From NCBI GenBank assembly GCA_022574595.1, contig JACZRS010000006.1:41848-105847 (forward strand): a stretch of 64,000 nt of DNA, given 5' to 3'. Positions 22,341-42,256 of this stretch are shown piece after piece. The DNA is from Planctomycetota bacterium. Lineage in GTDB: Bacteria > Planctomycetota > Phycisphaerae > Phycisphaerales > SM1A02. Made by a program: the position numbers and the translations under genes. Below the pieces are notes generated by a model. The model did not search any database. It was not told the DNA's origin and saw only the letters and a list, made by a program, of their open reading frames with translations. How positions within the stretch are numbered: position 1 is the first letter of the stretch; each line of letters starts with the position of its first letter.

Positions 22341-22545
22341 GGGTCAAACTCCATTCCTAACAGTGTCAGGCGAGGGAGATTAACGCCAAGGGGCAAAAAA
22401 CGCCAATTTGGTGCCATTTCAAATCCCAAGCAAAGCCCATGACTAGCTATTTATCCTATTAAATAAGCGATTTACTCAATTCATGCTTAGCACCTCTCCA
22501 CAAAGCCGCCATCATCTGCTGAAGATGCTAAAATGGCTCATACCT

Positions 22546-22621
<76 letters not shown>

Positions 22622-22682: not shown

Positions 22683-23918
22683 TCATGCCACCTTGGTAAA
22701 TACGGCTCGCTGTCGATCTGCTGCCGACTTCTCGACTTCGGTGTAATACTCAGCCGTGGTTGTGATACTTGAGTGTCCTAGAGCTGCTTGTAGTTCGTGC
22801 ATGGGGACACCGTTGGTAGCGCATATTGTTGCGAATGTTTTTCTTAGATCGTGCCAGCAGCCATGAGGCCAATTCTTGATTTCAAGCTTCTTTTTGGCTG
22901 CGTCTTGGATATCGTTAAATTCGCGGGTGAAGTTGTTTATGATATCAAAGTTGGCTCGGAGCTTTCCAGCCTTAGCTTTTGCATCAATAGCCAGCAGCCT
23001 TTTGATGCTGATAAAGATATAAGGGCTTCCATCGCCTAGTTTTTGCATCCGCATCAGCATCAAGACTGTCTCGGCTGGTATGGCTACGGTGCGGGTGGAC
23101 TTCTTTGTTTTAGGCTTCCAGGCCAAGATAGGCAGATCATGTTCATCGGTCGTGTAGCGCCCTTTGCGGTGTTCCTCGACCCGCACACTTCCAACACTAT
23201 CAAAGTCTACCCAACGTAAGTGAAGCAACTCGGCCCGTCTCAACCCGCTTGTGTATGCCAGTGTGATTGCTAGCTTCCACCAATTATCCGCAGCCTCGAC
23301 CATACCATCTAATTCACAATTCGAGAAGATGCGTTTGGGCCTGCTGATTTTCTCGCCAAGTTCTTCATCAGCAAATGGGTTTTCGGCAATCAGCTTCTTC
23401 TTAGTAGCTCGAGCAAACATTGCCCGCAGCATTGAAAGCGTTTTGCGAACAGTTGCTTTGCTTCTACCTTTACCCTCAAGATAAGCGCGAATCTCACCAG
23501 CATCAGTCCATTCGATATCGTTGAGAAGCTTGTCTCCAATCGCTTTGATGGCGTGGTTGCAAGCTGTACTCCATTCGATAACAGTTGTAGGCCGACAGTT
23601 GGGTTTGAGCTTTGTTTCGTGGTACTTGATGAACGCACTAAGTTTAATGCGAGTCCCGCTATTTTCTTCGGCGGCAAGTTTTTCAGTCTCGAGCTTAGCA
23701 TCACGTTCAGCTTCGAGCTGCTCAGCAAAAGCGTCGCACAATTCTTTCTTCTTTTGTTTTCTTGCTATGGCATCATTAGGAAGATCAACACTTTCACATC
23801 GGCCAAGGCTTCTATACTTAAACCCCGTCTTTTCACTCCACCGGAAATTAAAGTATTTAGTTGTCACACCACCTGGCATTTTCTTTGTTCTGCAAATTAG
23901 TATAACTTTGGGGTCCAT
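22683..23918 (-). CDS. Tyrosine recombinase / site-specific integrase
   Basis: Catalyses integration and excision of the element at tRNA-Arg. The 411-residue protein has an N-terminal arm-binding region, a SAM-like core-binding domain (about 95-180) and a catalytic domain with Arg in TSGLRRAELLHLRW near residue 226, HxxR in WHDLRKTFATI near 356, the LGHSSI box and the nucleophilic Tyr in TAEYYTEVE near 391. All catalytic positions are present. I chose the ATG at 23918 because GGAGGT lies 7 bases before it; the longer TTG start at 23933 would sit inside that ribosome site. Its 3' end points to attL. Confidence 0.95.
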   Translation of the reverse strand: MDPKVILICRTKKMPGGVTTKYFNFRWSEKTGFKYRSLGRCESVDLPNDAIARKQKKKELCDAFAEQLEAERDAKLETEKLAAEENSGTRIKLSAFIKYHETKLKPNCRPTTVIEWSTACNHAIKAIGDKLLNDIEWTDAGEIRAYLEGKGRSKATVRKTLSMLRAMFARATKKKLIAENPFADEELGEKISRPKRIFSNCELDGMVEAADNWWKLAITLAYTSGLRRAELLHLRWVDFDSVGSVRVEEHRKGRYTTDEHDLPILAWKPKTKKSTRTVAIPAETVLMLMRMQKLGDGSPYIFISIKRLLAIDAKAKAGKLRANFDIINNFTREFNDIQDAAKKKLEIKNWPHGCWHDLRKTFATICATNGVPMHELQAALGHSSITTTAEYYTEVEKSAADRQRAVFTKVA

Positions 23919-24036
23919 AGCCGTTACCTCCAATTATCCAATTGGCAGCCGCTACTGCTGCGGTTCCTGGAATAGGACAGACAGCAACGGCCACCAAAGC
24001 TTAGATTTTCGCCAGTGTTTCCAGGAACCGGCAACA

Positions 24037-24284: not shown

Positions 24285-24572
24285 TTAGCCCAATCTATCT
24301 GCGAAATCGTTGTGCGCACGTTCATTAAGCTCTGCTAGCTGTTCCTCGTCGGGTAGGATGCGCTCCAACGCCTCCAGCACTCGACGTTCGCCTGGGGAGC
24401 GGGAGGAAAACTCATCTATCTGCCCCGGATTCTCTTTGTGCTGTTGTAGCCAATCGTTATGTTCGCGGTCCTGTTCGGCTTCGATATCGCGCTGCACGTC
24501 TTCGATGTCCTTGTTCGTATTAAGCAGTTCGTCAATAGCTGCGATAGCTTTTTGTCTGTTAAATTCGGTCAT
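24285..24572 (-). CDS. Small charged helical protein, unknown
   Basis: A 95-residue protein rich in Glu, Asp and Arg with long predicted helices (VQRDIEAEQDREHNDWLQQH, then RVLEALERILPDEEQLAEL). No family recognised. Its start overlaps the stop of the upstream gene by one base (TAATG), so it is translationally coupled within the element's small-gene run. Real coding is supported by this tight packing. Confidence 0.6.
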   Translation of the reverse strand: MTEFNRQKAIAAIDELLNTNKDIEDVQRDIEAEQDREHNDWLQQHKENPGQIDEFSSRSPGERRVLEALERILPDEEQLAELNERAHNDFADRLG

Positions 24573-25369
24573 TAAAAGTCCCTTTCGATGATAGGTTTGA
24601 ATTTCTTGAATTGGTCTAGCTCGAATATGAAAGCGCCGCCATCGGGCCTTGCGTTTTTGTCTCCCCTAGTATTACCCCAATCATCGTCAGTTGGTGGTTT
24701 TACCAGTTTATGTGCTAAATCAACGAAGCCGACATCAGAACCGCACGTTAGTTCAACCCTAGAATGTTTGTTTAGGTAAGTTGAGTCAGCGATTGAATGT
24801 CGGTAATCTTCGGCGCACTTCACAGCCTGATTAGCTTTAAGGAACACAAGCGCACCAAGTTCATCGTCTCCCAGTATCTTTTCATTGGGAAAGCGCACGC
24901 ACCATAGTTGGGGCAGATCACTATAATCAAAATCAGGTGAGCTACTGCTCACTACTGGCTGAACATCTTCCGCCATTCGCTTGTTGTGTGGCGGTTCCCA
25001 GCATTTATACTCGGCAAAGACAACCGAATATCGCGCTACTAGGCACTTATGCGCATCTGCTTTTTCCTTAAGTTTTGAATAAGCTGCGTCATCGCCACCA
25101 CGCTTAAATTTTGAATACGCCCTTTTTAATTTACTTGTAAACGCAGCCGACCGAAAATCGGGATCAGCGGCCAGCCCCTTGCGGATATCCTTGTACCACT
25201 TTGTCGGTGTCCCTTCTGGTCGAGTTACCCACGCATCAATAATCTCTACAAGTTTTAGTATCTCGTATTGATGTATTGAAAACTGTTGCGGTCCAGATTC
25301 AGCCATGCTTTTGAATTTTAGTTGCAGGGTTGTCCATGCGTTCTTTTGTTCCGTTAGTAGTAAATTCAT
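24572..25369 (-). CDS. Element-encoded protein of unknown function
   Basis: A 265-residue soluble protein with a helical, Lys-rich first half and a second half containing a DLPQLWCVRFPNEKILGDDE segment. No motif recognised. It lies 3 bases downstream of the 78-residue gene and overlaps the following gene by one base, placing it in the same transcript as the ATPase/helicase. Such genes between integrase and replication ATPase in mobile elements are often replication accessories; this is guesswork from position only. Confidence 0.6.
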   Translation of the reverse strand: MNLLLTEQKNAWTTLQLKFKSMAESGPQQFSIHQYEILKLVEIIDAWVTRPEGTPTKWYKDIRKGLAADPDFRSAAFTSKLKRAYSKFKRGGDDAAYSKLKEKADAHKCLVARYSVVFAEYKCWEPPHNKRMAEDVQPVVSSSSPDFDYSDLPQLWCVRFPNEKILGDDELGALVFLKANQAVKCAEDYRHSIADSTYLNKHSRVELTCGSDVGFVDLAHKLVKPPTDDDWGNTRGDKNARPDGGAFIFELDQFKKFKPIIERDF

Positions 25370-25372
25370 GTG

Positions 25373-25609
25373 TTAATTGTCTCCGGGTTTATTCTGGTTT
25401 TGTTTAAGTTCAATCGCATCAGCCAAATCTTCCAAATCTTTTTCCAACATTGCTAAATCCGCTAAAGATAAAGCCGAGAAACCTTTGATCGAATTTTGTA
25501 CAGCGCGTGAAATCCTTCGCAAATCTGCCGCATCCTTATCGCATTTTGAGGCCGATACGAATAAGTTTCTTAGCATTTTCAGTAAAAGTATTTTGTCTCG
25601 GTAGTTCAT
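25373..25609 (-). CDS. Small helical protein, unknown
   Basis: A 78-residue, mainly helical protein (ILLLKMLRNLFVSASKCDKD, then LADLAMLEKDLEDLADAIEL). Its start overlaps the end of the ATPase gene by 4 bases (ATGA), showing it is a translated part of the unit. No family recognised; could be a helicase partner by position. Confidence 0.55.
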   Translation of the reverse strand: MNYRDKILLLKMLRNLFVSASKCDKDAADLRRISRAVQNSIKGFSALSLADLAMLEKDLEDLADAIELKQNQNKPGDN

Positions 25610-27201
25610 TGTTTAGTTTCTCCTGCACCTGGATAACTAAGGACCACTTCGCCGTCGTCTTTTTTAATAAAATAAGTAAAGGGATTTCCACTTCTTCCTG
25701 TTCCCTCGCGTTGCCATAAGGGCGTATCTTTTTCAGCGCCTAATTTCAAGTCTCTGCGGATGGTTCTTTCCCCCGGTCGTACGATATCGGTATCGGAATC
25801 TTCCCAGAGTTCATTGTGAATCTGGAGGGAACTAGCTCCGGGTGACTCAGTGGGAAGAATACTACGTAAAACTTTCAAGCGGTCCATTTCTTTGGCATCG
25901 CTCTTACTGCCAACACCCTCATAGTCACCATCCGCTGTGAGTTCAAGCACAATTTCATCTGGGGTTTCGTCAAATCGGCTATATGTGGTCAGCACCCGTC
26001 GGCTGTCCGAACGGTTCTTTGCATCGAACCGTCGTATTTCAATCGAAACATCTACAAAGCCGACTAGCGCACCACTGCCTCGACTAGCTTGCCCCTCGCC
26101 TGCGTCGCCCTTCTTGGAATGATGGATTAAGAGCAGCGCTGCACCTGCGGCTGTGATTTTCTCCAAAGGCAATAGAGCAGTGAGCATTTCAGCACTAGAA
26201 TTTTCGTCTCTCAGCGGGCACAAAGAGGCGAAAGTGTCGAGAATAACGATATCAAACTCATCTTCATGTACCCACTCCGCTAGCTGGTCAATAAAACCCA
26301 CCCATTCCCTATGAGAAGGTTTGGCTAAGAAAGGCTTGAGCTTGAAGTGAACATAATCGCCAAAGCCAAGGTCATCGCGCCGCCTTGCCCAAAGCGTACC
26401 CCCTTCTTCACTAACAACCAAAACGCGGGCCTTTTCAATTTTCGTGCCTAGTTGGCCTCCTTCACCACAAGCTTTTAACAGATGTGAGATTGCAGTCGTT
26501 TTACCGACTTTGGGAAGCCCACTAAACAGGGTTTTATATCCCACAGCGACAAAGCCGTCCCAAATAAATTCGATGGATTCTCCCTCAGCTAGTTGTGAAG
26601 CAGGAATTGGGCGGGATTGTAATGTCTTGTCTGGCAGACTTGCCCCTATAGGGGCCAGACAAGACATTTCCCCCTCTAGGGCCTTTAAGGTGCTATCGGC
26701 ACTTGCACCATTTAGTAAATCCGCATGAGTTGAACGGAGAATATCGTCAAGCTTCATCCGCTTTAAGCGGTCCACCAAGATAGCTAGTGATTCACTTACC
26801 CAATGAGGTTGGATTACTTTAGCTGCGTAGCCCCAGCTGTTATGCACTCGCTCTAGCGCTGCGGTTATTTCATAATTTTGATACCTGTTTAGGTCGTCAA
26901 GCTTCTTGCCAACGATATGAGGATCAGCTTGTTCGCACTCTATCATCTCATCAATGCAGATGCGGGCCATATCCTGCTCAAGATTGCTTACGAATAAGTC
27001 GGGTTCCAGCAACGAGATATGGCCGTTAATCAACTCAGGCCGCACCATCATTGTTGCGAGAAGCAAATCTTCATTTTCCTGCTGTGAGTCCCTTGTTCCA
27101 GGTGTGGGAAGTGGCGGAAGTTTGATATCCCTCCCTAAAAGTGAGCCTGGAGGTTTGACAGCACGAGTTCCCATAGCTATATTTTGGTCGTCCTTGAACA
27201 T
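25606..27201 (-). CDS. DnaB-N-like / RepA-type (AAA_25) replicative ATPase
   Basis: A 531-residue protein that probably drives replication of the excised element. Residues about 35-150 resemble the helical N-terminal domain of DnaB helicases (LLLATMMVRPELINGHISLL). A RecA-fold ATPase follows: Walker A SGLPKVGKTTAISHLL near residue 229, VVSEEGG, Walker B IVILDTFASL and LLLIHHSKKGDAGEGQASRG, the pattern of RepA/RSF1010-type hexameric helicases. A winged-helix-like C terminus ends the protein. A perfect palindromic repeat of the element is embedded in frame at 26621-26668 between the two domains. Confidence 0.85.
   Translation of the reverse strand: MFKDDQNIAMGTRAVKPPGSLLGRDIKLPPLPTPGTRDSQQENEDLLLATMMVRPELINGHISLLEPDLFVSNLEQDMARICIDEMIECEQADPHIVGKKLDDLNRYQNYEITAALERVHNSWGYAAKVIQPHWVSESLAILVDRLKRMKLDDILRSTHADLLNGASADSTLKALEGEMSCLAPIGASLPDKTLQSRPIPASQLAEGESIEFIWDGFVAVGYKTLFSGLPKVGKTTAISHLLKACGEGGQLGTKIEKARVLVVSEEGGTLWARRRDDLGFGDYVHFKLKPFLAKPSHREWVGFIDQLAEWVHEDEFDIVILDTFASLCPLRDENSSAEMLTALLPLEKITAAGAALLLIHHSKKGDAGEGQASRGSGALVGFVDVSIEIRRFDAKNRSDSRRVLTTYSRFDETPDEIVLELTADGDYEGVGSKSDAKEMDRLKVLRSILPTESPGASSLQIHNELWEDSDTDIVRPGERTIRRDLKLGAEKDTPLWQREGTGRSGNPFTYFIKKDDGEVVLSYPGAGETKQ
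26621..26668. repeat. Element palindrome copy 1 (inside ATPase gene)
   Basis: Perfect 15-base inverted arms AATGTCTTGTCTGGC (26621-26635) and GCCAGACAAGACATT (26654-26668) around an 18-base centre, which overlaps a second palindrome GCCCCTATAGGGGC (26642-26655). Translated in frame within the linker of the ATPase. Related copies lie at 39804-39853 and 39965-40010. Confidence 0.9.
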
Positions 27202-27509: not shown

Positions 27510-27719
27510 CTATGCCAGCACAGCTTTACGCCGTGTGTTAATTTTTTCTAGTTCTAATGCGATCTTTCTGACTGTAGCAGTATCAAACATTCGTACATGC
27601 GCGATCCGTGTCACTGGCTCAATATCAACGCGGGCATCTACGAGATAACGAATCCTTGACGGCGCCAAACCAAACATTTTCGCAATTTCATTGACGGTTT
27701 TTAGCTCATTACTAACCAT
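27510..27719 (-). CDS. Small HTH DNA-binding protein (MerR/excisionase-like)
   Basis: A 69-residue protein. LKTVNEIAKMFGLAPSRIRY is a helix-turn-helix with the MerR/excisionase style, followed by VDIEPVTRIAHVRMFD, which would be the wing. The ATG at 27719 is preceded by AGGAG with proper spacing; a longer frame to 27755 would run over the palindrome TGCGCG-N7-CGCGCA at 27734-27752. That palindrome directly upstream suggests self-regulation. It is divided from the ATPase operon by about 310 bases. Confidence 0.75.
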   Translation of the reverse strand: MVSNELKTVNEIAKMFGLAPSRIRYLVDARVDIEPVTRIAHVRMFDTATVRKIALELEKINTRRKAVLA

Positions 27720-27733
27720 GAATTCTCCTGTTC

Positions 27734-27752
27734 TGCGCGCGAAAATCGCGCA
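27734..27752. promoter_or_regulatory. Palindrome TGCGCG-N7-CGCGCA before HTH gene
   Basis: Perfect 6-base arms immediately upstream of the ribosome site of the 69-residue HTH gene; same arms as at 27245-27260 upstream of the ATPase gene. A candidate operator for the HTH protein. Confidence 0.5.
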
Positions 27753-27755
27753 CAA

Positions 27756-28363: not shown

Positions 28364-30415
28364 TTACGGACACGGCCCCCAATTAGCGAAGAGGATTAGC
28401 ATATCGCTGGTATCTACGACACCGCTGCCATCGAAGTCGGCTGGACCTGCTGTACCCCATTGTGCAAAGAGTGCAAGTAGATCGGATGTTCCGACACTTT
28501 CATCACTGTCGAGATCCCACGGACACAATTCCTCACACTCATCCGGTATCCAGTTGCCGTTCTTGTCGGGTAAGCCGCCGAAAAGGATGTCGCAAATATC
28601 AGGGATGTTGTTGCCGTTACAATCATCTTCGGTAACTGCCTGATACTCAATCTGGACTGTGACAAATGAGTCTTGACACAATTCGGCATTTACAGCAAAC
28701 GAAGCAACAAGCTGAAACTCTGCATCACCATCAGCGACTAATAAGGCGTATGCCTCGCCTTCCAAAACTAACTGCGCTTCATCAGGAGGATCTGGACAAT
28801 CGTTGCCAGTCTGCATGAATACAGTTCCAATTAGCTGGTTGTTGAGGAAAACATCAATCCATTCAGTTGCCGATCCCAAATCGGCAGAAGCCGTCATTGT
28901 GACTATCACCTGTGTCCCAGGCTGTGGTGATACTTCGGGCTGTGCAGTGAAAGTGTGTGATTGTGGAACACCGTCACCGATTGGTCCTAGTGGAGGTGAA
29001 GTCTCTACAAAGTAAAGAACCTGACAATCATCAGGCACTTCATCGCCATCGCAATCCTCGCTAAATCCATCCGCTACATCACACTCGTCCGGTACACCGT
29101 TACCGTTGCAATCATCACTCGACTGATCGGTAATGTCGCACTCGTCTGCGATTCCATTCCCATTGCAATCAGGTTCACAATCATCTGGTATTCCATTCTT
29201 GTTGCAATCAGGCGCACCTAGATCCACGGAAAAGACATAAGCTGAACCTGACCACTCGCCATTGTCATTATCAAAACGTGCGCCAAAAGCTGTCAAGCCT
29301 TCATCTATTACAACGGCAGTACCAAATCCATCATTCTCAAAGCCATCTGATGATTCAAGTATTGCCTCTTCGTTCCACGATTTCCCATCGAAACGAAATA
29401 GATACGCCGCGTCTGCGCTTCCGACTATCACTAGATCGCCACTAATGCCTACTGAAAAGCCAAAGTTGTCATCTGGTGATCCATCTGATGCGAGTAGTTT
29501 TATTTCTTCATCCCAAGTCGATCCGTTGAATCGAAAGACATATGCTGCACCAGAATCACTGCCATTGTCATCACTACCCCATGCTCCAACTACGACTACT
29601 TCACCACTGATCGCGACAGAAGCTCCGAAGTTGTTGAAAAACTCAGAATCTGACGCAAAGAGGGTCACTCTCTGCCACGACACACCATTGTGTCGAAAAA
29701 TGTGTACTGCGCCTGCATCGGTTCCTTGAGCGTCAGAGCCCGGCTCACCGGCTATGGCAGAATCTCCATCTACGTCTACAGATAGGCCAAAATGGAAGAA
29801 AGGGTTAGGAGCATTCGAGTTAAAGATGTCTTCTAAAATCCATTCAACTCCAACAAAGCGGTACACTCTCGCTAAGCCAGCGTCAGTCTCCCCCGGATTC
29901 CCGGCATTGTCAAAAGGTGCTCCTGCAATCGCAACATCACCACTGATTGCTACAGAAAATCCTAACTCGCCATTACTGTTCATGGGGTTAAGAAACGATT
30001 CTTCTTCGATCCAGGAGATGCCATCAAATCGGTAAATGTAGATTTCACCGCGCCCGCCCTGCAACGGCGCACCTACTATTACCGCATTGCCATCAATGCC
30101 TACAGTAAACCCGAATTCATCTAACGAACCTCCATTGGAGGCTAAGAGCTTAACTTCTTCTCCCCAAGTCGATCCATTAAACCGATAGATATATGCTGCG
30201 CCGGTGTTCGGACCATTTTCATCATCGTGACGAGCACCTACTACAACAACATCACCGCTAATAGCTACCGCATTCCCAAATTGATCGAACGCTTCGCCAT
30301 CCGATGCCAGCAACTTCTCTAGCTCACACTGCCCCCAAATAGCAGAGTTGATAAGAGTCACAGCGCACACACTGACGAGCAAATATAGTGCGATATTTCT
30401 GCTATTGATAAACAT
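28364..30415 (-). CDS. Secreted FG-GAP repeat protein with Ca-binding and dockerin-like tail (cargo)
   Basis: A 683-residue exported protein. The signal segment NIALYLLVSVCAVTLINSAI is followed by about seven FG-GAP-type repeats (LLASDG..., then FGNAVAISGDVVVVGA and AAYIYRFNGSTW) over residues 30-410. Next come thrombospondin type 3-like calcium motifs (DCNGNGIADECD, DCNGNGVPDECD), a beta domain, and a planctomycete dockerin-like end (DLDSDESVGTSDLLALFAQW, DFDGSGVVDTSDMLILF). The ATG at 30415 is preceded by AAGGAG. It lies inside the mobile element, next to a truncated gene. Confidence 0.85.
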   Translation of the reverse strand: MFINSRNIALYLLVSVCAVTLINSAIWGQCELEKLLASDGEAFDQFGNAVAISGDVVVVGARHDDENGPNTGAAYIYRFNGSTWGEEVKLLASNGGSLDEFGFTVGIDGNAVIVGAPLQGGRGEIYIYRFDGISWIEEESFLNPMNSNGELGFSVAISGDVAIAGAPFDNAGNPGETDAGLARVYRFVGVEWILEDIFNSNAPNPFFHFGLSVDVDGDSAIAGEPGSDAQGTDAGAVHIFRHNGVSWQRVTLFASDSEFFNNFGASVAISGEVVVVGAWGSDDNGSDSGAAYVFRFNGSTWDEEIKLLASDGSPDDNFGFSVGISGDLVIVGSADAAYLFRFDGKSWNEEAILESSDGFENDGFGTAVVIDEGLTAFGARFDNDNGEWSGSAYVFSVDLGAPDCNKNGIPDDCEPDCNGNGIADECDITDQSSDDCNGNGVPDECDVADGFSEDCDGDEVPDDCQVLYFVETSPPLGPIGDGVPQSHTFTAQPEVSPQPGTQVIVTMTASADLGSATEWIDVFLNNQLIGTVFMQTGNDCPDPPDEAQLVLEGEAYALLVADGDAEFQLVASFAVNAELCQDSFVTVQIEYQAVTEDDCNGNNIPDICDILFGGLPDKNGNWIPDECEELCPWDLDSDESVGTSDLLALFAQWGTAGPADFDGSGVVDTSDMLILFANWGPCP

Positions 30416-30599
30416 GTCCCAAACTCCTTCTTTGGCCGCAGGTGTCACCAAATCAATCACCTCATACTAACGCGCCAGCCTGGTATCTGAAAGGTTTCTC
30501 AGCAAGAACGGGGTTATGGGTGTGAATTCGCCTATCATGGCCTTATGCCCGATGTTTGTGCAAACTAGGAAAGGATATCAAAACTCACTTTAAGAAAAG

Positions 30600-30707: not shown

Positions 30708-31409
30708 TTAGTTGCGTTGTTCTAAAAATGATGCTCGTGCATTTTCTACCTTGGAAATACCATCGTTCAGCTTAGCGAGTATCTCATTGCGCTCTTTCGT
30801 AGGAACAAACGCCTCGATCTCCACCTCAAGATGATCTTTGTCCAAGAGTAAATTCACCGACAACCTCCATGCTTCGGCTTCGACCGCACATTGTTCGATT
30901 GTCGTTGTGTATAGCGTCCCGGGATGAAGTTCAGTACGAAGCCGCTCTTCTAATTGCTTGCCACTGTCAAGAAGTCTGTTGAAGAGGTGAAGAGTTATGT
31001 CGCGTTTAGCGTCCGTCACCGAACTAGCTTTTAGATGCTGCCTTTCCTCTTCAATATTCCGCCTAATCTCTTCTGCTGTTTCGTTAGCGGTTGTTTCGGC
31101 TTCTTCGCGCTCCAGATCAATCGAAGCTGCCGAGCGACATATCCCGACAAGAAACATGCATACCCACAAGATGACGCCTACGCCTATTGCGAGCAACGTT
31201 GGTCCTATCTGGGCCTTGGCATCAACCGGCCCAATGAATATCGCATAGAGTGGAAGGCTGATAAGTGTGACAAGCGGGGGCATTAGAATCGCTCCAAAAG
31301 CAATCCACGGGTGGCCCCACGTCCAATACCACGCTCGCCGTGTAACTCGTCTGCAATACGACAAAATCGCCCCAAACAAAATTGGCCGGCCAGCTTTCTT
31401 GGTATCCAT
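30708..31409 (-). CDS. Membrane protein with coiled-coil domain, unknown (cargo)
   Basis: A 233-residue protein with two membrane segments (IAFGAILMPPLVTLISLPLY and IGPTLLAIGVGVILWVCMFL) followed by a long charged helix (REEAETTANETAEEIRRNIE) and a soluble alpha/beta end. No family recognised. It lies between two copies of the giant gene's 3' end, so it was probably added to the element. A role in cell envelope or superinfection exclusion would fit a mobile-element cargo, but nothing in the sequence proves it. Confidence 0.6.
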   Translation of the reverse strand: MDTKKAGRPILFGAILSYCRRVTRRAWYWTWGHPWIAFGAILMPPLVTLISLPLYAIFIGPVDAKAQIGPTLLAIGVGVILWVCMFLVGICRSAASIDLEREEAETTANETAEEIRRNIEEERQHLKASSVTDAKRDITLHLFNRLLDSGKQLEERLRTELHPGTLYTTTIEQCAVEAEAWRLSVNLLLDKDHLEVEIEAFVPTKERNEILAKLNDGISKVENARASFLEQRN

Positions 31410-31578: not shown

Positions 31579-34500
31579 TCAACCCCCACCCAGCAATACC
31601 TCAGTGTAATACTGCTCCGCTTTACCCAACAAATCCAAATCGTTCTTGCTCAAACTTGCAGCAAACAACTTTCTATCTCGCTCAGATAATCCACCCAGCG
31701 GGTGCATCCTTTTCAAACTTCGCTTAATACCTTCCTTGCTACCGCCCAAAGTTATATATTCAACTAGGTAGCGTTTAGCTGAATCTTCATCTTGGTATCG
31801 AATACTTAACCTGAAATTACGCAACGCATCAGTTCTTGCACCTTCACTAAAACCTACTGACTTGCCTTGCTTGATATTCCACTTGCGCTTTAAGCTTTGA
31901 ATTTCCGAATATGCGCTTTTATTCGGCTCAATTGTGTAGGCAGGTAATGAAGTTAATCGGTTCTTCAAATATGGCTTGCTTGGCTTGTCGGTGATAGCTC
32001 GGTATTCCTGCGATAAGCCATACACACGGAAAACATATTCCCAGCTATCTTGAATACGTCTTGGACGAGTTACATCGGGAAATAGTGACCGGCCAGTTGC
32101 CAACTCGAACGGGCCTTTGACGAATGGGCTTACACCTTGGAATACTTTATTGACTGGACCCAACGCTACATCGCTTGAAAGTTCCTTGACAGTACGTCTA
32201 TCAGAAAAATAGTCTGTTATATCCGTTGAAAGTTGATCTATACCGAACCATTCCAGGAAGTCACCACTTGTTCCCAGCCTGGAGAAGTAGATAACTTCGC
32301 CTTCATCATTGCGACCAAAGATAATATGCGGCCTACCTCGAACATGGTCTGGCAACTCTTTTTCTTCATCGCCAAAGAATACTAAGTTAAACGCTTGTAA
32401 TAATGCATGCGCGCCATACAACAAGATTGTAGCCTGTCCTAACTTAACTCCTGCCCAAAGACTCTTGCTTGCTATGGTTATTCCAAGCTTACGCGCAACC
32501 ACAGCCCCGACTTTACCAGCAATTTGTTCATTGTTTGCAATGTTCCTTAGACTCTGACTGTATGCTCTAAAGTTCGTTTCTTGGAATGACCAGAAGGGAT
32601 ACCAGCGTTTGCGCAGCTCTTGTCCGACAATTGAAACATCGTCATACGCGCCAAGTAAATCATTCGCTAACTTGTAGGCTCTATCTCTTGCATCTGCAAT
32701 TCCTTGAACCTCTGCGGGTACGGAGGCATGGTTCCTGTTGGGATTATCTCGATAATCCAAGTAAGCAGCGTATCGGAGTATAGATTCGCGATAGTCAGTT
32801 CCTAAACCAGCTATGCGCCAATATCCGCGCCATGCACTCATAGGTAAAGTAACAGTTTTCTTTACTATGCCAGCTTCTTTATTACGCAGAAACCTATCAA
32901 ACTCTTTGAGCTTATCAATCTCGCCAATCTCTTGCACTCTGATTAGCGACTTAGTGCCTCCACGTTCTGCCCAATCTTTAACAGATGTTGACGCTTCTGA
33001 TGGATTCCTGAATAACGTGTATAGTTCTTTTACAGATTGCGGAACCCGTTGCAGAGCCTTTGGATTTATTGTAAACACCTTCTCGATTTCACTTGCATTG
33101 CGCAGGTTGTATTTGATGATACTTGTCGGACCCAGCAGTCTAAACTTCTTCCAGCCCCTTAACAGCGAAGCTTGCATAGTGGCAAACACACCCTCGGTAG
33201 GTGGCGGTGCTAGATTATCAAGTTGTTGTGCTAACTCGTTGGGAATTACCAGCGGCCTAAACTCTGAGCCTATACCTCTAACTTCTCTTAGGTCATCAGC
33301 CGTTATGCCTAATTCCTCGACTGTACCTTCAAGTAACCGCTGAGCCATAGACTCTTGAATTGAATGTGCAAGGTAGATAGTTCTCCCAGGTCTAATTGCA
33401 TAAGCAATGTGTGACTCCGGTACTAAACTTTCCCACTCCACAAACTCGTCGCCAAGTTCTTTTCTAATCAGTTGCTTACGCTCTTGGATACCCGCCAGAA
33501 CAGTTCGCGCTCCTAGTTGCACCTCACCCTTACCGGAATCTGCGAGCTTGGCAATCTTCTCTATATCTACATCAGATACTTCGGCCTTTTCAAGTGTGGA
33601 CATACCGATTGCTATTTTTCTTCGCATCGGCATCGTGGGGTCTAGTTTGTTTACTTCTTCACTGATGGCTGCGAGTTGAGCTTTGATATCTTTATCCAGT
33701 GGCCGCACTTCACGCAACCTTGCTTGCTTGTTACGCAATACATTTATGCGCTCGACATTACTCTTGCCACCTACTAGCAGTTCGAAGTTCTTGGCCTTAG
33801 CTTGTGCCTTTAACTTATCAAGAATGTCGTAACGCTGGCGAATACTTTGAATAGTGTTGGCGGTTTGGGTGTCAACAATTAACTGGCTTATTACTTCCCA
33901 TTCAGCCTGGAGATAGTTGGCGTTGATATCAAGCTGAGAACCTTTGCGATGTTTTAAGAATCCTCGACTTGTTGGTGTTCTTAACTTCGCGGTTCCCTTG
34001 GTGGCGCTTTTAACATTGAGATAGTGCAACACCTGATGGCGGTAGTAGTCTTGCTTTTTTAGACGTTCGCTTGCCGGATATCCCACCGATTCCATTGCTT
34101 GAACATAATCACCACGAACAGCATCCCACATCTTCTTGCGAAACTCGATAGATGCCTGAATCACTTTGTCTGTGCTAACCGCAGCATCTATTCTCGCTTT
34201 ATCTACTTTAACTTGCGCGGGTGTGTAACCATACGGTAGTTCTCCGGTTTCATGGGATAAGTCATCTAGCAATACTTTTAACGAGAATGTTTCATACTGT
34301 GCAGCATTTAGTGGTTTAAGTGTACGAGTAAGTAAATCAAAGGTTCTATCCTGAGCAAGTGAACGAGCTTTGCTGAGTTTTAATAAATCACTTCGAGCTT
34401 GTCCAAACTGTTGTGTACGAGGAAGAAACTTCAATGCTCCGCGCTGTGTGCCTTCTGTTAATGATTGCCACCAATCACGCATCTTGCCAGCAAATCCAGT

Positions 34501-37164
34501 TTTACCTACACCTTCACGCGCAGCCATGATGCGCTGACGGATATCTTCATCCTCAATCAAACTGTAAGGTTTATCTCTTTCGGTTTGCTTGGCGGTATCT
34601 TCACCTACCAAATCTGCTGCGGATCTAACGCGCGGCCGCACTTTACCGCTGGGTGATATTTCCGAATCGGGTTGTTTGCTTGCGCCAACACCAGGAAACT
34701 CTGTACCTGGATCAAGTAAGTCTCTTGTCCTTGGTAAGCCACCTTCGTCTACTTCTTTTTCTTTAGAGGCAAAGAGTCCTTCAGCAGTTGGGGAAGTTGG
34801 CGCAGCACTGATCGTATTTCCGCTTTGCTTAATCGTTTGAAGGGTGTCTGTAATTTTGATAATAATGTCATTAACGATCTCCGATTGCTTTGCGCCCTTC
34901 TGGATAGCCTCAACGCCTTCATTAAGCGCATCCGATACAGGCCCTTTAACACCACTTAATTTATTGTAGACAAACTCGGCCACAGCAGCCCGTTCAGCCT
35001 CTTTGCCTGCAATGCTTAGGTTTACAATGGCCGCTTCCGATGATTCCAAGGCCGCTGCCTTATCAGTATTCGATATGTCTGCAAACAGCCGCTTATTCCT
35101 GCGGAGCAGCTTTTTTACTGCTTCACTGAGCTTAGCTTTGGCAACAAACAGATTAACTTCCGTGGACGTATCACCAAACAATGATGCCGTTGTCTCCGTG
35201 GTGGTAGGTGCTAGACCTACCAGCCGCACCATTTCCTGAACAACATCATCACTGACAGTGTTCTTACGCTTTCTAAGCGCTTCGGTAATCGCAGCTTGCT
35301 CTGAGTTTGAAAGCTGACCGATTATCACCCCCCGCTTAATACTCATCTCACCCTGCACAACCAGATCAAAGATTCCGTCCGTCAAGTTGGCCAGCAAAAG
35401 CCCCTTATGGACAAGCGGTTCTTTAATGTCGAGCCGTTCTATTTCGGCCTTCTCACTGGTTATGCCTGTTTCACGGAAAAACTTTGCAGCGTCGATTGGA
35501 GAGCCTTTACCTTCGGCCAGGTTAATCATCGCGCCAATGGCACGCGCTACCTTTGCATCGGCAGCTTCAACGAACCTTACAGCAAGTGTTTCTACTCCAA
35601 ACTTCTTGGCGATAGACAAACGATGATGCCCGTTTATCACATACACCTTGCCATCCGCCGAATCACGCCACACGGCTACAACACCCGCAAGATTCTGGTC
35701 GAATCCAGATACAGTTGAAAGTGCCGTTCCAACCCCCTCCACATTCAAACCTTGCTTAAACTGGAACCGAACTGGATCAACGGAAATATCTGCTATTGGG
35801 AAGTTTGCGTCAATGGCAGACTTTGGCGATATGTTGAGTTTTGGCTGCGTGGTTGGTTTTATGGGTGTATCTGGTGGCTTTGGTGCATCAAAAGCGCTGG
35901 GAGACTTTTGCGGAGCCTCTAACGCCTTCTTGACGGCATCTTGTATTTGTTGACGTTCCGGGCCTGTTGTACGCTCTGATGGCTTAACGATTCCCTTCAA
36001 GTCTGCTCTGCTCGGAGTATTTGGAATATCTGCAAGTTTGCGGGCTAAATCTGGTTTTGCTTTAACAAATTTCGATGCATCTGTAAGCAGTTCACCTTTA
36101 CTTGGCAGAATGTTTACGCCGGCAGAGATAGTTCCGCCAGCACCGGCTCCCAAAGTAAATGATGCCTTGAGTTCGGTACGGAAGTCCTCATCAAACTCTA
36201 GTGCAGTTGGATCTGCACCTGTCAATACTTGGGTAGTGCGTTCTAAAACGGTTTGGACCGCTTCTTCTCCACCCTCGCTTATTGCTGAAACAATAACATT
36301 GACTAATGCTTTTCGTCCACCTGGAACCCGCTTTAATATCATCCCCATTGGTGTAACTTCAACAATTCCCGCAGCTAGACCATAAGCCGATGCACCAAGC
36401 CTTGCGATACTCTCTGCTTCTTCTGGTTCATAACCCTGAGCTATTAACTTATCTCGCATATCTTCGAAGCTGAGTCCAGCTTCAATTGCACCAGCAAACG
36501 CTCCACCTGTTCCCGCAGCTAATAGAGCCGATGCTCGTACACTTAATCCCGCTGCAACTCCCGCAGCTCCGGTTGCTCCGCCAGTTAGAACCGCAGGCAG
36601 TAAAGTACCAATTGCCTCAGATCCATGCGATGCCCACCATCGCCATTTAGTAGGTGCAAAGCCGCCTGTTTGCTCAGCTTCAGTTGATTGTGGTATTTGT
36701 ACTTCTCTTATACCTTGAGGAATTGCTGAAACATCGGGTAAGCCAATCATTGCGCCCGCCTTGGCAATACCTTCCCCTGCAAGAAGTACACCTCGTCCAA
36801 CACCCGCAGCAATTTCGCCAACAGGTGACCGCTCGATATTTGCTCCTAATCTACGGCCCAAAGTTATTTCGGCTGCTCGGAGTTCTCTATTAGTTGTTAC
36901 TCCATCTGAGATATTAAATTGTTGTGATACAGCGATTGGGGTTTGTGAAACTCGACCGCTTATAGTCGATGCAGGCATACGGAAGCCAGGTGGCAAGAAA
37001 CTTTCGACAGGCTTAGGTTTATCAAAGAATCTATCTATTTTACTGGGGGACAAGCCAGGCCGATTTAGTTCATCAAGTACATCAAAGCTGCTCGGCTGCT
37101 GCGCTAACTCATCGAGTACATCGAAACCAGTTTGCTGTTTAAGTTCGTCGAGTACATCAATCAT
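31579..37164 (-). CDS. Giant phage-type polyvalent protein with ParB-like domain
   Basis: 1861 residues. The N terminus has three short repeats of F-D-V-L-D-E-L (residues 3-32). Residues about 110-350 are Gly/Ala-rich and hydrophobic (LLPAVLTGGATGAAGVAAGL), as in phage internal or ejected proteins. A ParB-like domain follows with YVINGHHRLSIAKKFGVE near residue 511. Long helical regions continue, and the last 500 residues (YNLRNASEIEKVF near 1350, RWYPFWSFQETNFRAY near 1525) resemble large polyvalent-protein-associated phage domains. It probably travels with or prepares DNA on transfer. Its start overlaps the upstream gene's stop by 4 bases (ATGA). Confidence 0.75.
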   Translation of the reverse strand: MIDVLDELKQQTGFDVLDELAQQPSSFDVLDELNRPGLSPSKIDRFFDKPKPVESFLPPGFRMPASTISGRVSQTPIAVSQQFNISDGVTTNRELRAAEITLGRRLGANIERSPVGEIAAGVGRGVLLAGEGIAKAGAMIGLPDVSAIPQGIREVQIPQSTEAEQTGGFAPTKWRWWASHGSEAIGTLLPAVLTGGATGAAGVAAGLSVRASALLAAGTGGAFAGAIEAGLSFEDMRDKLIAQGYEPEEAESIARLGASAYGLAAGIVEVTPMGMILKRVPGGRKALVNVIVSAISEGGEEAVQTVLERTTQVLTGADPTALEFDEDFRTELKASFTLGAGAGGTISAGVNILPSKGELLTDASKFVKAKPDLARKLADIPNTPSRADLKGIVKPSERTTGPERQQIQDAVKKALEAPQKSPSAFDAPKPPDTPIKPTTQPKLNISPKSAIDANFPIADISVDPVRFQFKQGLNVEGVGTALSTVSGFDQNLAGVVAVWRDSADGKVYVINGHHRLSIAKKFGVETLAVRFVEAADAKVARAIGAMINLAEGKGSPIDAAKFFRETGITSEKAEIERLDIKEPLVHKGLLLANLTDGIFDLVVQGEMSIKRGVIIGQLSNSEQAAITEALRKRKNTVSDDVVQEMVRLVGLAPTTTETTASLFGDTSTEVNLFVAKAKLSEAVKKLLRRNKRLFADISNTDKAAALESSEAAIVNLSIAGKEAERAAVAEFVYNKLSGVKGPVSDALNEGVEAIQKGAKQSEIVNDIIIKITDTLQTIKQSGNTISAAPTSPTAEGLFASKEKEVDEGGLPRTRDLLDPGTEFPGVGASKQPDSEISPSGKVRPRVRSAADLVGEDTAKQTERDKPYSLIEDEDIRQRIMAAREGVGKTGFAGKMRDWWQSLTEGTQRGALKFLPRTQQFGQARSDLLKLSKARSLAQDRTFDLLTRTLKPLNAAQYETFSLKVLLDDLSHETGELPYGYTPAQVKVDKARIDAAVSTDKVIQASIEFRKKMWDAVRGDYVQAMESVGYPASERLKKQDYYRHQVLHYLNVKSATKGTAKLRTPTSRGFLKHRKGSQLDINANYLQAEWEVISQLIVDTQTANTIQSIRQRYDILDKLKAQAKAKNFELLVGGKSNVERINVLRNKQARLREVRPLDKDIKAQLAAISEEVNKLDPTMPMRRKIAIGMSTLEKAEVSDVDIEKIAKLADSGKGEVQLGARTVLAGIQERKQLIRKELGDEFVEWESLVPESHIAYAIRPGRTIYLAHSIQESMAQRLLEGTVEELGITADDLREVRGIGSEFRPLVIPNELAQQLDNLAPPPTEGVFATMQASLLRGWKKFRLLGPTSIIKYNLRNASEIEKVFTINPKALQRVPQSVKELYTLFRNPSEASTSVKDWAERGGTKSLIRVQEIGEIDKLKEFDRFLRNKEAGIVKKTVTLPMSAWRGYWRIAGLGTDYRESILRYAAYLDYRDNPNRNHASVPAEVQGIADARDRAYKLANDLLGAYDDVSIVGQELRKRWYPFWSFQETNFRAYSQSLRNIANNEQIAGKVGAVVARKLGITIASKSLWAGVKLGQATILLYGAHALLQAFNLVFFGDEEKELPDHVRGRPHIIFGRNDEGEVIYFSRLGTSGDFLEWFGIDQLSTDITDYFSDRRTVKELSSDVALGPVNKVFQGVSPFVKGPFELATGRSLFPDVTRPRRIQDSWEYVFRVYGLSQEYRAITDKPSKPYLKNRLTSLPAYTIEPNKSAYSEIQSLKRKWNIKQGKSVGFSEGARTDALRNFRLSIRYQDEDSAKRYLVEYITLGGSKEGIKRSLKRMHPLGGLSERDRKLFAASLSKNDLDLLGKAEQYYTEVLLGGG

Positions 37165-38717
37165 TGAGTTATACCTAAGTCACGCTTAACTTCTTCTTCG
37201 GATATGTTTTTATTCTTCGCAGCTTCAGCAATTTCTTGCTTTGTTATGTCGCGTCTAAGTCGAGGCGAGTAGAACGTCTGCGCGCTACTTAAAGATTGCT
37301 GCAACTCAAGTATTTGTTGTGCTGCTAGTTTTACAGCTTCGGGGTCTGCCGGACTTAGATCGGCTGCTGATTTGGCTTTCTGAACCGCATCAACCGCAGC
37401 CGCATATAGCTTTGCAGCTTCGCTTGAGGTTAGTTCGCCATCGTCATCCTTGTTTTCACCAAGCCGTCTAACGTCACCGTCTTGGTCGCGTGTGTATTCA
37501 AACCGACCATTTTCGCTAGTCCAAACGTCACCAAGACCCTGACCTTCCGCAAACTCGCGCGGACCTTCAACTTCATCCAGCCCGCTGTGTGCGAAAGTGA
37601 ACAACAACGAAGCTTCTTGATCGTCCAACAGTTCTAGCTCATTCTGTATATCTTCTTGGCGCATCCTATCGCCAGCCGAATCGCTAAAGTTAGATGAAGT
37701 TTCAGCGATTTGCATACGTTGGTTTTGAATATCGTTAAGACTTCTAGCAAAGTTTGTACCCGATGCCATTACTCGTTTTCGCCGGAGCGCACGTTCTTCA
37801 TGCGATAACTCTTGTTGGAATTGTCGCAGTTCAATTTGACGTTCATCAATGACAGCTTCGCCAGTATGCAAGTCGGTTTTAAGTGGAGTTATTGACTTTA
37901 CGCCATTCTTATTATTGAATCGCCCCAAATCTCCATCTTCAGTAATTAGTATCTGCCCATCAGCGATATTGCTGAAGTGAATTTCCTTAACAGTTTCTTT
38001 ATTACTGAAATCAATCGACGCTACTTGCATAGGTTCTCGCTGCAATACTTTGGGACCAATTGCCGGTAGACCACGCCTGGCCCGATTAGCGTTGGCACGT
38101 TCAAACATGGCTGCGCGCTCTGCTTCGGGATTCTCGTTTATAGCTCTTCGTGTTGCATCCGCTGCGCGCCCTTCGCGTCGCTGTTTCTGAAATGCTCGGC
38201 GCTCAGTTTGCTTTTGTAATTCATCAGGAGATAAAACCCTTTGCGTTTGATTCTGAATATCCTCAAGCAAAGGAGCATTTTCAACAACACGCCGGTCTAT
38301 ACCGCGTTGGGTTTCCTCAAACTCTACTGCACGTTGGCGATTCAGTTCGTCTTGTATCTCAATGGCACTGGGATTAAGTCTGCGCTTCTCAGCAACAGCC
38401 GCAGCTAACTTCGCAGCCGGAGAGCCGGGCGATGGTGGTTGTGGATTGGCAAGTGAACGCTTCTTCTCAGCTACCGCGCCAGCTAGTTGATCGGCAGCAG
38501 ATAGAGCCGGGGCTAGTGGTGATTTAGGTTTGCCAATGTTCTTCAAGTCTCGCTTCTGGCGTTGTATGTTCGCAACGATTTCATCTTCACGTTTCTTGTT
38601 CAGCGCCGCAAGTTCTCGCTTTTTACGATTAAGCCTAGCCTTCCGCTGGCGATCTATTGCGCTATCGACGCGCTTGTTAAATTTCTTGCTTGGGTTTATT
38701 AGTCCTGGGTGTGGCAT
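37161..38717 (-). CDS. Coiled-coil partner of the giant protein, scaffold-like
   Basis: A 518-residue, highly charged helical protein. It begins with Lys/Arg-rich coiled coil (SAIDRQRKARLNRKKRELAA), has Ala-rich spacers (AKLAAAVAEKRR), a small beta-rich centre, and a second helical half ending near KQEIAEAAKNKNISEEEV. No family recognised. It is coupled by a 4-base overlap to the giant gene downstream, so the two probably form one structure. In phages, proteins of this type next to ejection proteins are scaffold or core components; this is inferred. Confidence 0.65.
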   Translation of the reverse strand: MPHPGLINPSKKFNKRVDSAIDRQRKARLNRKKRELAALNKKREDEIVANIQRQKRDLKNIGKPKSPLAPALSAADQLAGAVAEKKRSLANPQPPSPGSPAAKLAAAVAEKRRLNPSAIEIQDELNRQRAVEFEETQRGIDRRVVENAPLLEDIQNQTQRVLSPDELQKQTERRAFQKQRREGRAADATRRAINENPEAERAAMFERANANRARRGLPAIGPKVLQREPMQVASIDFSNKETVKEIHFSNIADGQILITEDGDLGRFNNKNGVKSITPLKTDLHTGEAVIDERQIELRQFQQELSHEERALRRKRVMASGTNFARSLNDIQNQRMQIAETSSNFSDSAGDRMRQEDIQNELELLDDQEASLLFTFAHSGLDEVEGPREFAEGQGLGDVWTSENGRFEYTRDQDGDVRRLGENKDDDGELTSSEAAKLYAAAVDAVQKAKSAADLSPADPEAVKLAAQQILELQQSLSSAQTFYSPRLRRDITKQEIAEAAKNKNISEEEVKRDLGITQ

Positions 38718-41051: not shown

Positions 41052-41387
41052 ATGGCTACAGCAACCGCACAAATGAACGACGAGGCACTGGACCGCGCAC
41101 AGAACGGGCAATCAGTGTCAAACTATCCAACCATCTACGCAGGGTTTGAGGCTCTAGGAATTGCTACGGCTGCGATCCTACCCCGGATCAACATATTCAG
41201 CTATCGAGCCTGGAAAGCTAAAGGCCGGCAAGTACGACGTGGTGAGCATGGCGTCAAGGTTGTCACTTATCTTCCGACCGAGAAGAAGGTAAAGCAGCCA
41301 GACGGGTCTGAGAAGATCGAGCATGGCAAACGTCCATGGCGCGCCACAGTGTTTCACATTAGCCAGACCGATTCCTTGACGGCTTAA
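41052..41387 (+). CDS. ArdC-like N-terminal domain protein
   Basis: A 111-residue protein. RINIFSYRAWKAKGRQVRRG followed by EHGVKVVTYLPTEKK and ATVFHISQTD matches the N-terminal single-stranded-DNA-binding domain of ArdC antirestriction proteins (family pattern N-x-x-T/S-Y-x-A-W ... Q-V-R-K-G-E-x-x ... V-F-x-x-x-Q-T). The metalloprotease half of ArdC is absent. A strong AAAGGAG site precedes the ATG. By family it would protect or bind the incoming single strand of a mobile element. Confidence 0.75.
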   Translation: MATATAQMNDEALDRAQNGQSVSNYPTIYAGFEALGIATAAILPRINIFSYRAWKAKGRQVRRGEHGVKVVTYLPTEKKVKQPDGSEKIEHGKRPWRATVFHISQTDSLTA

Positions 41388-41674: not shown

Positions 41675-42049
41675 TTACAAACTAATTTTCCCAGCCTGGA
41701 CAGACTGAATTTGTTCATCGCTCATTTCCCCGGCTAGAAACAGTTTTAAGTTGTCTGATTGAGGCGGCTGCCACGGTAACGGTTCAAGTAGATTCTCGTC
41801 GCGCGTTGTTGGCCTGGGCAATTCAGCTTTTTCAGCTAGCCACTGTTCCAGTTGTTCAGTTTCCATCAGTGCATCGCGCGCTGATTCCATTGATTTTCGC
41901 CAGGCTCTTGCAATAAAGTCATTTTCGCCAAATTCAGTATTGCTGAGATAATGTTCAGGGCAATTCTGCTTAACCAAGTTGTATAGATCATGCGCTGCAT
42001 CCGCGATTTGAGTCCCTTTCGCTGCTGACATTTTCGGTCGTCCCGTCAT
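41675..42049 (-). CDS. Small element protein, unknown
   Basis: About 124 residues, beginning MTGRPKMSAAKGTQIADAAH, with helical content and an acidic, Pro-containing C-terminal half. The start MTGRPK is seen in some small terminase subunits, but no further match supports that, so it is left as unknown. ATG at 42049 chosen over a longer frame to 42109 that would cover the terminal box. AAGGAAA precedes it. First gene inside attR. Confidence 0.5.
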   Translation of the reverse strand: MTGRPKMSAAKGTQIADAAHDLYNLVKQNCPEHYLSNTEFGENDFIARAWRKSMESARDALMETEQLEQWLAEKAELPRPTTRDENLLEPLPWQPPQSDNLKLFLAGEMSDEQIQSVQAGKISL

Positions 42050-42084
42050 AATTAGTTTTCCTTTTCTAGTGGTTAATTGTTGGC

Positions 42085-42106
42085 TAGTGCGCACCAAAGT
42101 GCGCAC
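42085..42106 (+). promoter_or_regulatory. Right terminal box
   Basis: TAGTGCGCAC-CAAAGTGC-GCAC, a near copy (three differences in 22) of the box at 22653-22674, 99 bases inside attR. Possible integrase or excisionase arm site, or promoter element of the gene starting at 42049. Confidence 0.5.
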
Positions 42107-42204
42107 CATCCGAGGTTAATTGAATGTTTTTGAAAGTAGTTTGAGATATAACGAATCTCGTTTGAGATACCGACAGGCCGTTTTTAGCCTAGAAACGATA
42201 CCTT

Positions 42205-42256
42205 GCATCGGTCTTCGGAACCGAGGGTTGGGGGTTCGAGTCCTCCCGGGCGTGTT
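42205..42256 (+). repeat. attR: 52-bp direct repeat
   Basis: Identical to 22570-22621. It contains only the 3' part of the tRNA-Arg and is not a functional tRNA. It ends the integrated element. Confidence 0.95.

What the first reader, a model, noticed from the sequence alone, without database searches (positions are those of the whole stretch)
31579..37164. Giant polyvalent protein with N-terminal triple DVLDEL motif and ParB-like domain
Three copies of a short F-D-V-L-D-E-L motif at the N terminus, a hydrophobic Gly/Ala region, a ParB-like GHHR site near residue 511 and a C-terminal half of phage polyvalent type. Proteins of this kind are thought to be injected with DNA. The repeated N-terminal motif could be a packaging or docking tag, possibly for the coiled-coil partner gene that overlaps it.
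Basis: partly seen in the sequence, partly recalled or inferred. Interest (0 to 1): 0.78.

Follow-up and report, generated by a model that had tools for sequence, protein, structure and literature searches.

The report
Phage ejection genes on capsid-less island
A 19.6-kb mobile DNA island inserted in a bacterial tRNA gene carries two cysteine-free proteins of the kind that phages eject into host cells, but no gene for a virus particle; the giant one begins with a triplicated short tag, and many related phage giants begin with a repeated tag of their own, which may help load such proteins into virus heads.

Summary
The 1861-aa protein (31579-37164, minus) starts with DVLDEL three times; residues 512-515 are GHHR inside a confidently predicted ParB fold (CTP-binding plus HTH domain). 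It is a phage ejection (internal virion) protein: ParB homologues sit after the tail genes of cultured podoviruses, full C-terminal homologues occur in about 80 loci, mostly uncultured phages, and both the giant and its 518-aa partner contain no cysteine (21.6 and 6.0 expected), a published mark of proteins ejected through tails. First, the genes lie on a 19.6-kb island bounded by a 52-bp repeat of the tRNA-Arg 3' end, with integrase, helicase and ArdC-N genes but no recognisable terminase, portal, capsid or tail gene; a smaller related island sits in tRNA-Thr. A phage satellite carrying its own ejection cassette is the best reading; a decayed prophage is the main rival. Second, literal DVLDEL repeats were found nowhere else, but 19 of 58 non-redundant giants carry a duplicated short N-terminal motif, each its own sequence, versus 12 of 992 neighbouring ORFs (p=5e-18). 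This suggests a co-evolving loading or docking tag. Packaging, the tag's function and helper dependence are untested.

The parts
22545..22620 (+). tRNA-Arg (tcg), integration site
   Evidence: ARAGORN
22570..22621 (.). attL-like: 52-bp repeat in the tRNA 3' part
   Evidence: exact direct repeat
42205..42256 (.). attR-like: second copy of the 52-bp repeat
22683..23933 (-). tyrosine integrase
   Evidence: PF00589 E=7e-18; phrog_1 E=1e-53
24572..25369 (-). 265-aa island protein, shared (36%) with the second island at tRNA-Thr
25606..27201 (-). replication AAA_25 ATPase with weak DnaB-N match
   Evidence: PF13481 E=2e-20; phage primase/helicase PHROGs
27510..27755 (-). small HTH protein, possibly AlpA/excisionase-like
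   Evidence: weak hits only: MerR_1 0.016, HTH_17 0.027; phrog excisionase 0.01
28364..30460 (-). secreted FG-GAP and dockerin-like protein, probable cargo
   Evidence: PF14312 E=2e-81
30708..31409 (-). 233-aa membrane protein downstream of the giant
   Evidence: two hydrophobic segments; weak Rz-spanin hit 0.003
31579..37164 (-). giant ejection-type protein, 1861 aa, no cysteine
37066..37158 (-). triplicated DVLDEL tag, residues 3-33
36085..36816 (-). hydrophobic Gly/Ala-rich region, residues 117-360, part of which is homologous to a Vibrio phage giant
35200..35817 (-). ParB CTP-binding domain plus HTH domain, residues 450-655 (GHHR 512-515)
31579..34467 (-). C-terminal helical region, residues 900-1861, shared with giants of uncultured phages
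37161..38717 (-). 518-aa charged partner, no cysteine, 4-nt overlap with the giant
41052..41387 (+). short ArdC-N antirestriction-like protein
   Evidence: PF08401 E=8e-7, above cut-off
41675..42109 (-). 144-aa island protein, shared (35%) with the tRNA-Thr island

Best explanation
The giant gene and its partner are a phage ejection cassette carried by a 19.6-kb tRNA-Arg-integrated island that has no particle genes. The island most likely behaves as a phage satellite: it excises and replicates with its own integrase and helicase, is packaged by a helper phage, and has its own giant and partner loaded into the helper's heads. The N-terminal DVLDEL triplet would be a short multivalent loading or docking tag that binds an internal head component (portal, core or capsid). 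On infection the cysteine-free proteins would thread through the tail, the hydrophobic and helical regions would help form the envelope channel, and the ParB CTPase/HTH domain would bind the incoming DNA. Shown: island borders, gene content, ParB fold (predicted), homology, synteny, absence of cysteine, statistical excess of N-terminal repeats. Inferred: packaging, helper, tag function, DNA binding.
For: 52-bp perfect repeat of the tRNA 3' end at both borders plus integrase and helicase. No terminase, portal, capsid or tail family among the ORFs of at least 78 aa scanned between the repeats. Second related island in the same genome at tRNA-Thr, 28002-37129 of C2, sharing two proteins clearly and two weakly, with no giant. 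Homologues occupy the ejection-protein slot after tail tubular genes in Prochlorococcus and MedDCM podoviruses and in a prophage of another genome of the same phylum, with capsid and tail genes. C-terminal homology to 63 viral and 19 genomic loci. Zero cysteine in 1861+518 aa, chance about 1e-12 at the local host rate; family median 0 per 1000 versus 8.4; N4-like vRNAP precedent (PMC3715699, PMC3915230). ParB fold: Foldseek E=2.7e-6, Z 11.1. Repeats in 19/58 giants versus 12/992 ORFs, p=5e-18, and versus 25/3229 internal windows, p=2e-23.
Against: No helper is known; the tag was not found in viral contigs. The host genome shows no Terminase_6, Phage_capsid or Phage_portal hit, so a resident helper prophage of those types is absent. 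AlpA-like identity is weak. Two thirds of the giants have no detectable repeat. Integrases also occur beside related giants in temperate phages, which fits a prophage remnant. No virion, excision or transfer data.
Confidence: 0.5

Rival explanations
1. Decayed prophage: a temperate podovirus-like phage integrated in tRNA-Arg lost its head, tail and packaging genes by deletion and kept the ejection cassette, integrase and helicase by chance.
For: Related giants lie in temperate phages with a tyrosine integrase close by; no particle genes are left; host-like cargo sits inside the borders.
Against: Giant and partner are intact and still completely cysteine-free, with 376 single-base changes that would create a cysteine in the giant; a second island with the same accessory genes has no phage structural genes; borders are perfect.
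Confidence: 0.27
2. Interference cassette: the island expresses decoy ejection proteins that enter or poison the heads of superinfecting phages, protecting the host; transfer is not involved.
For: Satellites commonly interfere with or defend against phages (established knowledge); an ArdC-N protein is present.
Against: No clear PADLOC defence match; a complete giant with ParB and C-terminal regions is more than a decoy needs.
Confidence: 0.13
3. The N-terminal repeats are not loading tags but processing sites for a head protease, or simply recent duplications in disordered tails.
For: Extra copies occur inside two giants, near the ParB region in L050; linkers are low complexity.
Against: Internal windows of the same giants rarely repeat (25/3229) versus 19/58 N-termini; copies stay recognisable in related phages.
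Confidence: 0.3

Closest known systems
Podovirus internal virion (ejection) proteins, T7 gp15/gp16 type; Prochlorococcus phage P-SCSP1 giant (2563 aa)
   Same: ParB region 30% identical over residues 453-776; preceded by a cysteine-free protein; giant itself cysteine-free
   Different: there the genes follow capsid and tail genes of a complete phage; the window C-terminal region is not detectably shared with that giant
Polyvalent proteins with DdrB-like ParB domain (Iyer, Burroughs and Aravind 2017, PMC5512222)
   Same: large multidomain protein on a mobile element with a ParB-superfamily domain, predicted to be injected
   Different: no relevant Pfam model is hit by the window protein or by the homologous stretches tested; a HTH follows the CTPase fold; no other enzymatic domain found; the paper's passages found do not describe N-terminal repeats
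Giant virion RNA polymerase of N4-like phages
   Same: giant, cysteine-free, ejected (PMC3715699, PMC3915230)
   Different: no polymerase; no sequence relation tested
PICMI, PICI and other phage satellites (PMC10803314)
   Same: small integrated island with integrase, replication gene and a possible AlpA-like regulator, no head genes
   Different: PICMI integrate next to fis and carry no ejection genes; here tRNA site, AAA_25 helicase and a 7-kb ejection cassette

Membership tests
Phage ejection / internal virion proteins | homologues encoded in the ejection slot of phage morphogenesis operons | tested here: met
   after tail tubular A/B in P-SCSP1g and MedDCM S31-C1; prophage in G430
Phage ejection / internal virion proteins | absence of cysteine, as reported for N4-like vRNAP | tested here: met
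   0 Cys in giant and partner
Phage ejection / internal virion proteins | present in virions and ejected | not testable with these tools
   needs virion proteomics
ParB/Srx superfamily | ParB CTP-binding fold with GxxR motif | tested here: met
   model pLDDT 77.5; ParB/Noc/KorB at Foldseek E down to 2.7e-6 and Z up to 11.1
ParB/Srx superfamily | CTP binding or DNase activity | not testable with these tools
   biochemistry needed
DdrB-like ParB (polyvalent proteins) | match to a curated family profile | tested here: inconclusive
   no ParB-type Pfam hit for the window protein or for the homologous stretches tested; fold fits the superfamily only
Phage satellite | integrated, bounded island with integrase | tested here: met
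   52-bp repeat, tRNA-Arg, PF00589
Phage satellite | no complete set of particle genes | tested here: met
   no recognisable terminase, portal, capsid or tail gene between the repeats
Phage satellite | AlpA-type regulator and primase | tested here: inconclusive
   HTH only weak, AAA_25 helicase instead of a clear primase
Phage satellite | helper-dependent packaging and transfer | not testable with these tools
   no helper known
Intact prophage | terminase, portal, capsid, tail genes | tested here: not met
   whole genome lacks PF03237, PF05065, PF04860 hits

The most novel reading that the evidence does not exclude
Duplicated N-terminal motifs in giant ejection proteins are a general, fast co-evolving cargo-loading code for phage heads, functionally comparable to encapsulin loading peptides, and this island is a kind of satellite not seen before that brings its own ejection proteins and tag to a helper's particle.
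Probability: 0.3. Interest if true: 0.82.

Novelty: new variant of a known kind. Interest (0 to 1): 0.62.

Why it matters
How phages load huge proteins into heads and thread them out is largely unsolved. A short, repeated, phage-specific N-terminal tag would give a testable loading signal for phage heads. A satellite that supplies ejection proteins would mean that phage parasites can change what their helper delivers, not only what DNA it packs. Absence of cysteine is also a cheap marker for finding unknown ejected proteins.

Tried and rejected
Reading phrog_21 'portal protein' (E=1.7e-49) as a portal: the match is only to the last part of that profile and lies on the ParB region, so it was rejected. 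Weak matches in G038, G158 and G414 were judged spurious. Scans of viral and genome contigs with the window protein alone found nothing; alignment A1 was too divergent to scan with; A3 worked. Searching for a second DVLDEL pair in viral contigs gave two hits, neither lying in an ORF of at least 80 aa on the matching strand. tblastn with the 60-aa N terminus found nothing in phages. The C-terminal model is poor (pLDDT 55.8) and was not used for fold search; its profile had no meaningful PDB match. No plasmid match and no cultured phage shares the C-terminal region. Looking for the tag in other proteins of the same locus was mostly negative, with one suggestive case in Sphingopyxis flava. Partner homologues by sequence were not found; only position, size, charge and lack of cysteine agree. 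The cut-off of 41 for repeats was the window's own score, so it is post hoc; other cut-offs also separate giants from controls. Start codons of metagenomic giants were chosen mechanically.

Full report
Observation. The ORF at 31579-37164 (minus) is intact, 1861 aa, and starts MIDVLDELKQQTGFDVLDELAQQPSSFDVLDELNRP. DVLDEL occurs three times in 33 residues; F precedes only the second and third. Shuffling shows this is not chance. GHHR is at 512-515. The 518-aa ORF overlaps by four bases.

What the protein is. Pfam finds nothing. PHROGs gives phrog_21 at residues 444-758 (E=1.7e-49); although named portal, the matching part is the profile's end, and ParB-like families also match weakly there. tblastn in cultured phages finds the same region in giant proteins of Prochlorococcus, MedDCM, Ruegeria and Vibrio phages and in 'Dunaliella viridis virus SI2'. 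In P-SCSP1g and MedDCM S31-C1 these genes follow the two tail tubular genes, the slot of T7 ejection proteins. An alignment of 20 sequences has invariant F467, Q468, W499, D501, D504, G505, N511, G512, H513, R515, N548 and others. The AlphaFold2 model (pLDDT 77.5) matches ParB, Noc and KorB over the CTP-binding domain and the following HTH domain (Foldseek best E=2.7e-6, VIA Z up to 11.1). So the ParB part of the finding is right, and it includes a DNA-binding-type HTH.

The C-terminal half. Residues 914-1131 and 1287-1855 match giants of diverse uncultured viral contigs (L048, L051, L055, L056). A profile of this region finds 63 viral and 19 bacterial-contig loci, including the isolates Sphingopyxis flava and Novosphingobium sp. 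FKTRR1. No cultured phage in INPHARED has it. Among these loci the giant is usually preceded, within about -10 to +20 bases, by a charged protein of roughly 250-650 aa, mostly without cysteine. The window's 518-aa partner fits that pattern but shows no detectable sequence homology.

No cysteine. The giant has 0 cysteines; 21.6 are expected at the rate of host genes in the window (P=4e-10), and the partner has 0 where 6.0 are expected. Of 58 non-redundant family giants, 53 have fewer than one per thousand residues; other ORFs over 300 aa in the same loci have a median of 8.4. The N4-like virion RNA polymerase is reported as devoid of cysteine, explained by passage through the tail and periplasm (PMC3715699; PMC3915230). 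This is independent support that both proteins belong to the ejected kind, and that they have not drifted far from it.

The tag. In the C-terminal-region family, 19 of 58 non-redundant N-termini carry a duplicated short motif scoring at least as high as the window's (the window itself is one of the 19), against 12 of 992 N-termini of other ORFs in the loci (several of these are collagen-like, Pro/Ala-rich or probably spurious; Fisher p=5e-18) and 25 of 3229 internal windows (p=2e-23). An earlier set chosen by the ParB region gave 7 of 20 against 0 of 218. Each protein has its own motif: NPFDRFD, NPFAKYGG, NPLLQYLD, NPLL.[AE]WDR, LDYDPFED, DEEFASLDSIAS, EEFRDWL, P.ENEYLQ, DEFGIPIK, QF.DIP.GYKVLPP, IPEGFELE, DFLSSLGVK and others. 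By eye they share a grammar of acidic residues with two or three large hydrophobics, two or three copies 11-32 residues apart. In Sphingopyxis flava the 101-aa membrane protein just downstream of the giant also ends with NPLIEAYDR. In L056 the repeats are on the 944-aa protein directly upstream. This fits a short multivalent docking or loading tag that evolves with its partner inside each phage. It is inference; a processing site remains possible. The literal DVLDEL pair was not found in IMG/VR by a degenerate DNA pattern, which covers only some codon choices.

The island. tRNA-Arg (22545-22620) and a perfect 52-bp repeat of its 3' part at 42205-42256 enclose 19,635 bases. Inside are a tyrosine integrase beside the tRNA, an AAA_25 ATPase resembling phage primase/helicases, small HTH proteins, an FG-GAP/dockerin-like secreted protein, a membrane protein, the cassette, and an ArdC-N protein. 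PHROGs and Pfam find no terminase, portal, capsid or tail gene there. The same genome has a second, 9.1-kb island in tRNA-Thr (C2, 28002-37129; 45-bp att repeats with three mismatches) that shares the 265-aa (36%) and 144-aa (35%) proteins and, weakly, two small ones; it has another integrase, a primase/helicase-like protein and no giant. Several hundred other genomes of the phylum sample lack the cassette except for one prophage homologue. The whole genome has no Terminase_6, Phage_capsid or Phage_portal hit.

Interpretation. The cassette is phage-derived with high confidence (about 0.9) and the island has no particle genes of its own that these profiles recognise (about 0.9). Whether it is a working satellite (0.5) or a decayed prophage (0.27) is open: related giants occur in temperate phages with an integrase nearby, while intact ORFs, preserved absence of cysteine and the sister island favour a maintained mobile element. 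Satellites such as PICMI carry integrase, AlpA and primase and no head genes (PMC10803314); two full-text searches on satellites and ejection proteins brought up no report of a satellite carrying ejection genes, which is a limited search.

Limits. Host taxonomy is hidden by the tools; planctomycete affinity is my inference from dockerin-like repeats. Start codons of metagenomic ORFs were assigned mechanically; the repeat cut-off is post hoc; the C-terminal fold is unresolved; no complex was modelled.

Noticed in passing
genome contig C2 28002-37129 (loci L015, L016): A second, 9.1-kb island in tRNA-Thr shares two proteins clearly and two weakly with the window island but has a different integrase and no giant protein.
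   Followed up: partly
L077 12940-13245: In Sphingopyxis flava a small membrane protein directly downstream of the giant ends with NPLIEAYDR, nearly the giant's own N-terminal repeat NPLL.[AE]WDR.
   Followed up: partly
L050 (residues 296, 485), L059 (residue 394): Extra copies of the N-terminal motif occur inside two giants, in L050 just before the ParB region, as if modules with their own tags had fused.
   Followed up: no
L005 (HQ332136.1): 'Dunaliella viridis virus SI2', recorded with an algal host, is classed as a tailed phage and encodes a ParB-type giant; the host label looks doubtful.
   Followed up: no
window residues 444-758 of the giant (PHROG phrog_21): The profile is named portal protein, yet its end matches the ParB region of ejection giants, so annotation by this profile would call them portals.
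   Followed up: yes
L039, L041, L043 and similar: ParB-containing proteins of 663-1327 aa in other viral contigs; those of 1068-1327 aa that were counted have 9-17 cysteines and lack the giant C-terminal region, so they are probably not ejected.
   Followed up: no
window 28364-30460: A secreted FG-GAP protein with dockerin-like repeats, a host-type protein, lies inside the mobile island next to the ejection cassette.
   Followed up: no
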